Positions 6,862-7,455 of a DNA stretch of 8,251 nucleotides are shown here, piece by piece. The notes under the pieces were generated by a model, which saw only the letters and a program-made list of their open reading frames with translations, searched no databases and was not told the origin of the DNA. The stretch comes from Thermodesulfatator sp. (GTDB taxonomy: Bacteria > Desulfobacterota > Dissulfuribacteria > Dissulfuribacterales > QOAL01): assembly GCA_003978135.1 (NCBI GenBank), contig QOAL01000149.1:1-8251 (forward strand). Direction: 5' to 3'. The position numbers were made by a program, and so were the translations under genes. Positions within the stretch are counted from its first letter, which is position 1. Each line of letters begins with the position of its first letter.

Positions 6862-7455
6862 TTACTTTGCGTGTTTTGAAAGGTATTCGGCTACTCCCTC
6901 GGCAGTGGGCTTCATGGCCTCTTCGCCTGGCCTCCAGTTTGCCGGGCAGACCTCGCCCACAGATTCATGGTATTGAAGTGCTTCCAGGATCCTCAGGGCC
7001 TCGTCAAAATTCCTTCCAAGAGGCAGGTCATTTACAAGGTTGTGCCTGATAATGCCCTCCTTGTCTATGAGGAACAGACCGCGGAGCGCAATCCCTGCAT
7101 CCTCAAGGAGTACTCCATAGGAAAGGGAGATTTTCTTGTTGAGGTCGGAAACCAGGGGATACTTGATTCTTCCGATGCCGCCTTTTTCCACCGGTGTCTG
7201 CCTCCATGCAAAATGGCTGTAGGGAGAATCCACGGAGATACCGAGAACTTCGCAGTTTTTCTCCTTGAATTTGTCGATTGCCTTGTCCAAGGCAATTATT
7301 TCTGTGGGTCAGACAAAGGTAAAATCCAGTGGGTAGAAGAAAAGAAGAACGTATTTCCCCCTGTAGGATGACAATGTGATATCCTGAATAGAGTCATCAG
7401 GCATGACTGCCTGGGCTGTGAAATCAGGGGCCTCTTTTGTAACCATTGTGCACAT
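6862..7455 (-). CDS. prxU: Selenocysteine-containing 2-Cys peroxiredoxin (PrxU/AhpC-Prx1 type)
   Basis: Reading from ATG at 7455 (AGGAGGA 8 nt upstream) gives a 197-residue peroxiredoxin of normal length if one in-frame TGA (7309-7311, codon 49) is translated. It falls exactly in the active site: FYPLDFTFV-U-PTE, where the family has the peroxidatic Cys of FTFVCPTE. The frame is uninterrupted on both sides (DFTAQAV and SYRGKYVLLFFYP before; ALDKAIDKFKEKN after). The resolving Cys170 is present in VCPANWRPG. GGIG (92-95) and a C-terminal YL resemble the motif pair of peroxide-sensitive 2-Cys enzymes. A SECIS-like hairpin follows at 7277-7296. TGA ends other genes here (986, 3278, 3992), so it is not simply a sense codon. 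The enzyme reduces H2O2 and organic peroxides in the cytoplasm. It lies 53 nt after rubrerythrin. Automated calling would give only a 142-residue fragment starting at TTG 7290, or a pseudogene. Confidence 0.93.
7277..7296 (-). promoter_or_regulatory. SECIS-like hairpin for selenocysteine insertion
   Basis: On the mRNA, 12 nt after the UGA, ATTGCCTT (7296-7289) pairs perfectly with AAGGCAAT (7284-7277) around the tetraloop GGAC. The loop starts 20 nt after the UGA and begins with two G. As I recall, bacterial SECIS elements have a short apical loop with an early G roughly 16-37 nt after the UGA, so this fits. It lies within the coding sequence, as bacterial SECIS elements do. Confidence 0.8.

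What the first reader, a model, noticed from the sequence alone, without database searches (positions are those of the whole stretch)
6862..7455. Selenocysteine replaces the peroxidatic cysteine of a 2-Cys peroxiredoxin
Seen: one TGA at 7309-7311 interrupts an otherwise complete peroxiredoxin exactly at the catalytic residue (FTFV-U-PTE), with full homology on both sides and an intact resolving Cys170. TGA also works as a stop in other genes here. Known: selenocysteine peroxiredoxins (PrxU) exist in some anaerobes. Inference: a true selenoprotein, giving faster peroxide reduction. Standard annotation would truncate it to an inactive C-terminal fragment or call it a pseudogene.
Basis: partly seen in the sequence, partly recalled or inferred. 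Interest (0 to 1): 0.78.

Follow-up and report, generated by a model that had tools for sequence, protein, structure and literature searches.

The report
Selenium version of two-cysteine peroxiredoxin
A likely anaerobic bacterium, known here from a partial genome, carries in a predicted oxygen-defence gene cluster a peroxiredoxin gene whose key cysteine codon is UGA, predicted to be read as selenocysteine; related genomes have either UGA or a cysteine codon there, which would allow a natural test of what selenium adds to one enzyme.

Summary
The gene at 6862-7455 (minus) is a 197-residue peroxiredoxin with one in-frame TGA (7309-7311) at the peroxidatic position, U49, and resolving Cys170. It is no base error: of 30 class genomes with the gene, 16 have TGA and 14 Cys there. 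The part after the TGA is under purifying selection, and a hairpin fitting the published bacterial SECIS model begins 12 bases downstream, kept by paired changes in TGA genes but not in Cys genes. The 56%-complete genome has SelA, SelB, tRNA-Sec and two further TGA genes; SelD is missing from the bin but present in 3 of 3 genus mates. It is not PrxU as curated (167.5 bits, cut-off 270). PrxU proteins of relatives lack the resolving Cys in 17 of 18; this one keeps it. Residue 56 is Leu in 16 of 16 Sec genes and Phe in nearly every Cys relative examined, apparently because the SECIS loop touches that codon. One Cys homologue inside the Sec clade looks like a reversion. A predicted selenoprotein: new variant of a known kind.

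The parts
6862..7455 (-). Predicted Sec-containing typical 2-Cys peroxiredoxin gene, 197 residues plus TAA stop
   Evidence: Read-through translation; Pfam AhpC-TSA 138.8 bits and 1-cysPrx_C 54.6 bits; dN/dS after the TGA about 0.01 against 3 of 3 genus mates
7309..7311 (-). In-frame TGA, residue 49, predicted selenocysteine at the peroxidatic position
   Evidence: TGA at this codon in 16 of 30 class genomes with the gene, TGC/TGT in the other 14
7277..7296 (-). Predicted SECIS hairpin: 8-bp stem, GGAC loop, loop 20 nt after the UGA
   Evidence: MFE -8.7 kcal/mol, z -1.75; pairing and paired changes across Sec genes, not in Cys genes; synonymous-codon null 40 of 5000
7288..7290 (-). Codon 56 (TTG, Leu): its last base is the first loop G; Phe in nearly every Cys relative examined
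   Evidence: Leu in 16 of 16 Sec genes, Phe in 14 of 14 class Cys genes; Phe in 70 of 71 wider Cys loci and 118 of 119 database Cys proteins with a readable motif
6946..6948 (-). Resolving Cys170 codon (GEVCPANW)
   Evidence: Cys in 15 of 16 Sec genes and 14 of 14 Cys genes
7509..8084 (-). Rubrerythrin, directly upstream of the peroxiredoxin
   Evidence: NF045767 299.2 bits, cut-off 200; same place in relatives
5456..6793 (-). Multihaem c-type cytochrome downstream in the same cluster
   Evidence: Pfam cytochrome matches; synteny
4998..5453 (-). Desulfoferrodoxin/superoxide reductase-like protein with a twin-arginine-like N-terminus
   Evidence: PF01880 81.8 bits; the signal is read from the sequence only
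4516..4890 (-). Desulfoferrodoxin (superoxide reductase)
   Evidence: TIGR00320 204.5 bits, cut-off 146.9
3992..4510 (-). Ferritin-like protein (start taken at an internal ATG, not tested)
   Evidence: PF00210 152 bits on the longer frame 3995-4582
3677..3904 (-). Rubredoxin
   Evidence: PF00301 77.4 bits
3278..3439 (-). Second, short rubredoxin
   Evidence: PF00301 88.3 bits
2051..3253 (-). Flavodiiron protein (FprA-like)
   Evidence: PF19583 and PF00258

Best explanation
The gene encodes a typical 2-Cys (Prx1-type) peroxiredoxin whose peroxidatic cysteine codon is UGA, predicted to be decoded as selenocysteine by SelB and tRNA-Sec with the help of a predicted SECIS hairpin just after the codon. 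The selenolate of U49 would attack the peroxide, the resulting selenenic acid would form a selenenylsulfide with Cys170 of the partner subunit, and a thioredoxin-like donor would reduce it (inferred from Prx1 chemistry; not tested). The enzyme would be the peroxide-removing step of an oxygen-defence cluster with rubrerythrin, superoxide reductases, ferritin, rubredoxins and a flavodiiron protein (inferred from conserved gene order). The first loop base of the hairpin lies in codon 56 and appears to have forced Phe to Leu there (inferred). The Cys form is the likely ancestral state.
For: TGA in 16 and Cys in 14 of the 30 class genomes with the gene, out of 46 searched. Own genome: SelA 540.3 bits, SelB 338.9 bits against cut-off 242.25, tRNA-Sec 74.4 bits against 47, named SeC with anticodon tca by ARAGORN. 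FdhA (834.7 bits) with one TGA in CARV-U-HAPSVSGL, and an FlpD/MvhD-type protein with TGA in FTGG-U-HLGECHYQSGN. Hairpin within the published bacterial SECIS limits: 88.3% of cells paired in Sec genes and 7 cells changed on both sides (0 of 500 shuffles as high), against 49.1% in Cys genes, no better than shuffles. Downstream of the TGA 4-8 nonsynonymous against 63-73 synonymous differences in 3 genus mates. Same gene order around Sec and Cys forms. Fifteen Sec rows and one Cys row form a supported clade, the sixteenth Sec row its weakly supported sister.
Against: SelD was not found in the own bin (22 bits against cut-off 125); the bin is 55.68% complete and 3 of 3 genus mates have SelD over the cut-off. 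Genome G034 has the TGA gene but no SelA match and no SelD over cut-off at 90% completeness; SelA was also not found in G017 and G018. The tRNA-Sec model exceeds its cut-off in 5 of 14 control genomes, so it is not proof alone. The hairpin alone is modest (z -1.75, 13 of 200 shuffles as good); synonymous recoding gave as low an energy in 197 of 5000, and with Phe at position 56 a stem as long in 392 of 5000. Two of the covariation measures are not striking: 2 pairs with changes on both sides (55 of 500 shuffles) and 6 further pair types (41 of 500); the outermost pair is unpaired in 12 of 15. One of 16 Sec genes (L043) has lost the resolving Cys. No protein-level or kinetic evidence.
Confidence: 0.94

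Rival explanations
1. Sequencing or assembly error, or a pseudogene: TGA is a true nonsense change of TGC/TGT.
For: The window comes from a fragmented, 55.68%-complete bin; one base separates TGA from TGC or TGT.
Against: TGA at the same codon in 15 other genomes; dN/dS after the TGA 0.008-0.013 against three genus mates (synonymous change near saturation); Leu56 and the hairpin go with the TGA.
Confidence: 0.01
2. TGA is reassigned (for example to Trp or Gly) throughout this genome.
For: Two further genes of the own genome are open across one TGA.
Against: TGA ends 4 of the 11 window genes; SelA, SelB and tRNA-Sec are present; the TGA falls exactly in the catalytic Cys column and at FdhA and MvhD sites that I recall as Sec sites.
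Confidence: 0.01
3. Two separate products: UGA terminates, and a downstream start (TTG at 7290) makes a C-terminal protein without a peroxidatic residue.
For: The mechanical ORF list gives such a 142-residue ORF.
Against: Both sides of the TGA are under purifying selection as one peroxiredoxin; the Cys orthologues are one unbroken gene at the same place; the TTG lies within the hairpin.
Confidence: 0.03
4. It is an ordinary member of the known PrxU selenoperoxiredoxin family (NF040737).
For: Same fold and same Sec position; hits the model with 167.5 bits.
Against: The curated cut-off is 270; it scores higher on PRK15000 peroxiredoxin C (237.1), and three Cys homologues score alike on PrxU (163.1-167.1). 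Eighteen of 60 genomes (own and relatives) carry a PrxU over the cut-off, 38-43% identical to this protein, 17 of 18 without the resolving Cys.
Confidence: 0.03

Closest known systems
Typical 2-Cys peroxiredoxins (Prx1/AhpC-type; nearest NCBIfam model PRK15000 peroxiredoxin C; PDB 2h01, 1qmv)
   Same: Fold, PxxxTxx(C/U) active site, resolving Cys170, C-terminal 1-cysPrx_C domain; positional orthologues with Cys lie in the same gene cluster
   Different: UGA in place of the peroxidatic Cys codon; Leu instead of the usual Phe at position 56; 237.1 bits against the PRK15000 cut-off of 301
PrxU selenocysteine peroxiredoxin (NF040737; type protein from Eubacterium acidaminophilum, recalled)
   Same: Sec at the peroxidatic position of an AhpC-fold peroxidase; present in relatives of this genome, including 3 of 3 genus mates
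   Different: This protein scores far below the PrxU cut-off; PrxU in relatives has Thr at the resolving position in 17 of 18; 38-43% identity
COG1225 Sec peroxiredoxins (TXXU) and COG0450 Prx-like UXXC selenoproteins of the Sargasso Sea survey (PMC1088965, passages)
   Same: Peroxiredoxin-fold selenoproteins; the COG1225 group shares the TXXU motif
   Different: The COG0450 group there has a thioredoxin-like UXXC motif; this protein has TXXU followed by PTE, plus the distant resolving Cys. Their sequences were not compared here

Membership tests
Bacterial selenoprotein | In-frame UGA aligned with Cys in homologues | tested here: met
Bacterial selenoprotein | SECIS: 3-9 nt loop, 4-16 bp stem, G in the first two loop positions, 16-37 nt from UGA, MFE at most -7.5 (limits from PMC13188914) | tested here: met
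   4-nt GGAC loop, 8-bp stem, 20 nt, -8.7 kcal/mol
Bacterial selenoprotein | SelA, SelB and tRNA-Sec in the genome | tested here: met
Bacterial selenoprotein | SelD in the genome | tested here: inconclusive
   None over cut-off in the 55.68%-complete bin; 3 of 3 genus mates have it
Bacterial selenoprotein | Selenium in the protein | not testable with these tools
   Needs labelling or mass spectrometry
Typical 2-Cys peroxiredoxin (structural class) | PxxxTxx(C/U) active site and conserved Arg | tested here: met
   P42, T46, U49, R125 (alignment; motif roles recalled)
Typical 2-Cys peroxiredoxin (structural class) | C-terminal resolving Cys in VCPANW | tested here: met
   C170; 15 of 16 Sec genes, this one included
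Typical 2-Cys peroxiredoxin (structural class) | Intersubunit link between residue 49 and Cys170 | not testable with these tools
   Needs the protein
PRK15000 peroxiredoxin C and TIGR03137 AhpC (NCBIfam) | Curated scores of 301 and 272 bits | tested here: not met
   237.1 and 152.5 bits; three Cys homologues also fall short (PRK15000 227.2-255.9). Not filed under either model
PrxU (NF040737) | Curated score of at least 270 bits | tested here: not met
   167.5 bits, 165.0 on the genome

The most novel reading that the evidence does not exclude
A separate selenoperoxiredoxin lineage, distinct from PrxU, in which one clade of bacteria turned a standard typical 2-Cys peroxiredoxin into a Sec-Cys enzyme in place, inside a fixed oxygen-defence gene cluster. 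The SECIS imposed a Phe-to-Leu change on the protein, and at least one descendant went back to Cys, keeping a non-Phe residue (Met) as a scar. It would cycle through an intersubunit selenenylsulfide.
Probability: 0.6. Interest if true: 0.58.

Novelty: new variant of a known kind. Interest (0 to 1): 0.5.

Why it matters
Why some enzymes use selenium rather than sulfur is a long-standing question. Here what looks like the same enzyme, in the same gene cluster, exists with Sec or with Cys (nearest Cys homologue 91% identical), so rate, resistance to overoxidation and dependence on the resolving Cys could be compared in one scaffold. It also suggests a coding cost of selenium use: the recoding hairpin appears to dictate an amino acid seven residues after Sec. 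Practically, ordinary ORF calling reduces the gene to a fragment without the active site, so peroxide defence in such bacteria is likely under-annotated.

Tried and rejected
Pseudogene or base error, genome-wide reassignment and split gene were weighed and set aside; PrxU membership was tested by curated score and not met (see rivals). SelD in the own bin was sought and not found. Rfam at gathering threshold found only a tRNA in the window. One promoter-like site was found near the gene, no more than shuffles give (mean 1.4). The genome-contig scan kept the best 80 of 131 relatives: 13 of the 80 have TGA at the aligned codon, 9 of this clade and 4 distant proteins (37-41% identity) that were not assigned to a group. 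The protein search listed the best 120 of 8000 scored. For the tree, residues 49 and 56 were masked; 86 rows were used: 16 Sec and 14 Cys class genes, 45 of those 120 proteins, and 11 of the 80 contig loci. The tree holding the Sec rows together without P0002 is 25 log units worse, p-AU 0.048, which is borderline. No structure was predicted; sequence matches to solved 2-Cys peroxiredoxins made it redundant.

Literature: passages only were seen of PMC1794560, PMC13188914, PMC9312934, PMC1088965, PMC12013277, PMC7463578, PMC5109826 and PMC8533274. Ten searches listed no paper that I could recognise, from listings and those passages, as describing a Sec form of a typical 2-Cys peroxiredoxin. Supplements and subscription papers were not seen; the Desulfococcus multivorans Sec peroxiredoxin (PMC5109826) and the 12 Sec peroxiredoxins of PMC1794560 were not assigned to a subfamily, so such a protein may be among them. 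The 2001 PrxU paper is recalled and was seen only in reference lists.

Full report
Observation. The minus-strand frame 6862-7455 reads as 197 residues with one internal TGA at 7309-7311 (U49). The residues around it, PLDFTFV-U-PTE, are the peroxidatic loop of a typical 2-Cys peroxiredoxin, and Cys170 stands in the resolving motif GEVCPANW. Pfam AhpC-TSA (138.8 bits) and 1-cysPrx_C (54.6 bits) match, and the best solved relatives are 2-Cys peroxiredoxins and Prx1/Prx2 proteins. TGA ends 4 of the 11 genes listed (those ending at 986, 1701, 3992 and 7509), so it is a working stop here. The ORF list gives only a 142-residue fragment of the gene.

The TGA is conserved. Of 46 class genomes searched, the own genome included, 30 hold the gene at E 1e-60 or better; the aligned codon is TGA in 16 and TGC/TGT in 14. 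Fifteen of the 16 are in the window's own family of 19 genomes, where 2 have Cys and 2 have no match at that threshold; the sixteenth, G034, is of another family of the order. Of 395 genomes drawn from the phylum, 58 hold the gene; 9 have an internal TGA, all of the window's family, and 49 have no internal stop. After the TGA, the gene differs from three genus mates by 4-8 nonsynonymous against 63-73 synonymous changes, dN/dS 0.008-0.013. Synonymous sites are near saturation, so the ratio is rough, but selection on the downstream part is plain.

The decoding apparatus. In a bin of 1.28 Mb, 231 contigs and 55.68% completeness, SelA (540.3 bits), SelB (338.9, cut-off 242.25) and tRNA-Sec (74.4 bits, gathering 47; ARAGORN SeC, anticodon tca) are present. 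The tRNA-Sec model exceeds its cut-off in 5 of 14 control genomes, SelA and SelB in 2 of 14 each. SelD is not found, but all 3 genus mates have it over the cut-off, each with one internal TGA. Two further genes of the own genome are open across one TGA: formate dehydrogenase alpha (CARV-U-HAPSVSGL) and an FlpD/MvhD-type protein (FTGG-U-HLGECHYQSGN) (that these are usual Sec sites is recalled). Against: among the 16 TGA genomes, SelA was not found in 3 (G017, G018, G034), and SelD over cut-off not in 2 (G000, G034); only G034 lacks both, at 90% completeness. SelB and tRNA-Sec were not searched in relatives. The apparatus does not by itself bring Sec into this gene: the Cys-bearing family members G007 and G010 have SelA and SelD too.

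The hairpin. Twelve bases after the UGA begins an 8-bp stem with a GGAC loop; the loop starts 20 nt after the UGA and the fold is -8.7 kcal/mol. These values lie within the published limits for bacterial SECIS (passage of PMC13188914). Alone it is only moderately unusual: 13 of 200 shuffles fold as well. Synonymous recoding reaches an equal or longer stem in 40 of 5000 and an equal energy in 197 of 5000; with Phe at position 56 the figures are 392 and 375 of 5000; 6 of 1893 other codon positions in the window have as long a stem at that spacing. The comparative evidence is stronger. Across the 16 Sec genes (15 distinct) 88.3% of cells pair and 7 cells change on both sides, with none of 500 shuffles as high, and slid versions fall to 56.7% or less; two other measures (2 pairs with double changes, 6 further pair types) are reached by 55 and 41 of 500 shuffles, and the outermost pair forms in only 3 of 15. 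In the 14 Cys genes 49.1% of cells pair, no better than shuffles. The longest G-loop stem is 7-8 bp in 15 Sec genes and 5 bp in G034, against 2-5 bp in the Cys genes, three of which also reach 5.

A protein-level footprint. The first loop G is the last base of codon 56. All 16 Sec genes have Leu there (TTG or CTG, followed by GAC or GAT); all 14 class Cys genes have Phe. In the wider set Phe is found in 70 of 71 Cys loci of at least 45% identity (one reads His; alignment not checked) and in 118 of 119 database Cys proteins with a readable motif, out of 120 listed; the exception is P0002 with Met. A solved Cys enzyme, 2h01_A, has Leu, so Leu is not unique to Sec forms. The simplest reading is that the hairpin dictated it (inference).

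History. In a tree of 86 rows with residues 49 and 56 masked, the 15 family Sec genes plus the Cys protein P0002 form a supported clade (99/89), with G034's Sec gene as weakly supported sister (84/76); two changes of state suffice. Holding all Sec rows apart from P0002 costs 25 log units, p-AU 0.048, a borderline rejection. P0002 is 91% identical to the window's protein, and its placement beside the genus is weak (92/47). I read this as one Cys-to-Sec gain and one reversion, with Met56 as a remnant; only the protein of P0002 was seen.

Not PrxU. The protein scores 167.5 bits on the PrxU model, cut-off 270, and three Cys homologues score alike (163.1-167.1). Eighteen of 60 genomes (own and relatives) carry a PrxU over the cut-off, every one with a TGA; these are 38-43% identical to the window's protein, and 17 of 18 have Thr where the resolving Cys would be (alignments, counted by eye). 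The window's protein keeps the resolving Cys, as do 15 of 16 Sec genes in all; L043 has Met. It also stays under the cut-offs of PRK15000 and AhpC, so I file it by anatomy as a typical 2-Cys peroxiredoxin and under no NCBIfam model.

Setting and mechanism. The order rubrerythrin - peroxiredoxin - multihaem cytochrome - superoxide reductase-like - desulfoferrodoxin - ferritin - rubredoxin - flavodiiron protein is kept in genus mates (L046-L048) and around Cys orthologues (L053-L055), of which L054 and L055 showed no superoxide reductase-like gene at the threshold used. So Sec appears to have replaced Cys in place in a predicted oxygen-defence cluster. The proposed cycle, selenolate to selenenic acid to intersubunit selenenylsulfide with Cys170 and reduction by a thioredoxin-like donor, follows from Prx1 chemistry and is not tested. 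The reductant and any gain in rate are unknown. The GGIG (92-95) and YL (191-192) stretches resemble motifs tied to overoxidation sensitivity in eukaryotic Prx1 (recalled); selenium would be expected to ease recovery from overoxidation (inference).

Novelty. Selenocysteine peroxiredoxins are well known: TxxU Prx selenoproteins in surveys (PMC1088965, PMC1794560, PMC9312934, PMC13188914; passages) and PrxU as a curated family. Two of those surveys file the TxxU type under COG1225, and one lists a COG0450 group with UXXC. I found no described Sec form of a typical 2-Cys peroxiredoxin with its resolving Cys within the ten searches named in Tried and rejected; this is a limited search. I call it a new variant of a known kind.

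Noticed in passing
window 3278-3439 (-): A second, 53-residue rubredoxin (PF00301, 88.3 bits) lies between the rubredoxin and the flavodiiron gene; it is below the ORF length limit used and ends in TGA. Several relatives show a second rubredoxin there too.
   Followed up: partly
window 1701-2030 (-): A 109-residue protein with paired cysteines near its C-terminus has no Pfam or NCBIfam match at E 0.001 (best at E 0.1 is a weak zinc-finger), yet follows the flavodiiron gene in L054, L058 and L077.
   Followed up: no
window 5456-6793 (-): Multihaem cytochrome in the oxygen-defence cluster; matches the ExtKL (seleno)protein model only weakly (68.8 bits, cut-off 250). Its role beside peroxiredoxin is unclear.
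   Followed up: no
L043 (genome G005): A Sec orthologue that has lost the resolving Cys (EKVMPANW) and sits on a long branch: possibly a shift towards a one-Sec mechanism.
   Followed up: no
L031 (genome G034): TGA peroxiredoxin with a hairpin, but no SelA match and no SelD over cut-off at 90% completeness: a binning gap, or a gene stranded without its apparatus.
   Followed up: no
L121, L123, L124, L125: Distant peroxiredoxin relatives (37-41% identity) in Dehalococcoidia, HR08, Pyrinomonadaceae and Chloracidobacterium records also have TGA at the aligned codon.
   Followed up: no
window 6828-6844 (-): A GC-rich hairpin follows the peroxiredoxin stop, a possible terminator or processing site between it and the cytochrome gene.
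   Followed up: no
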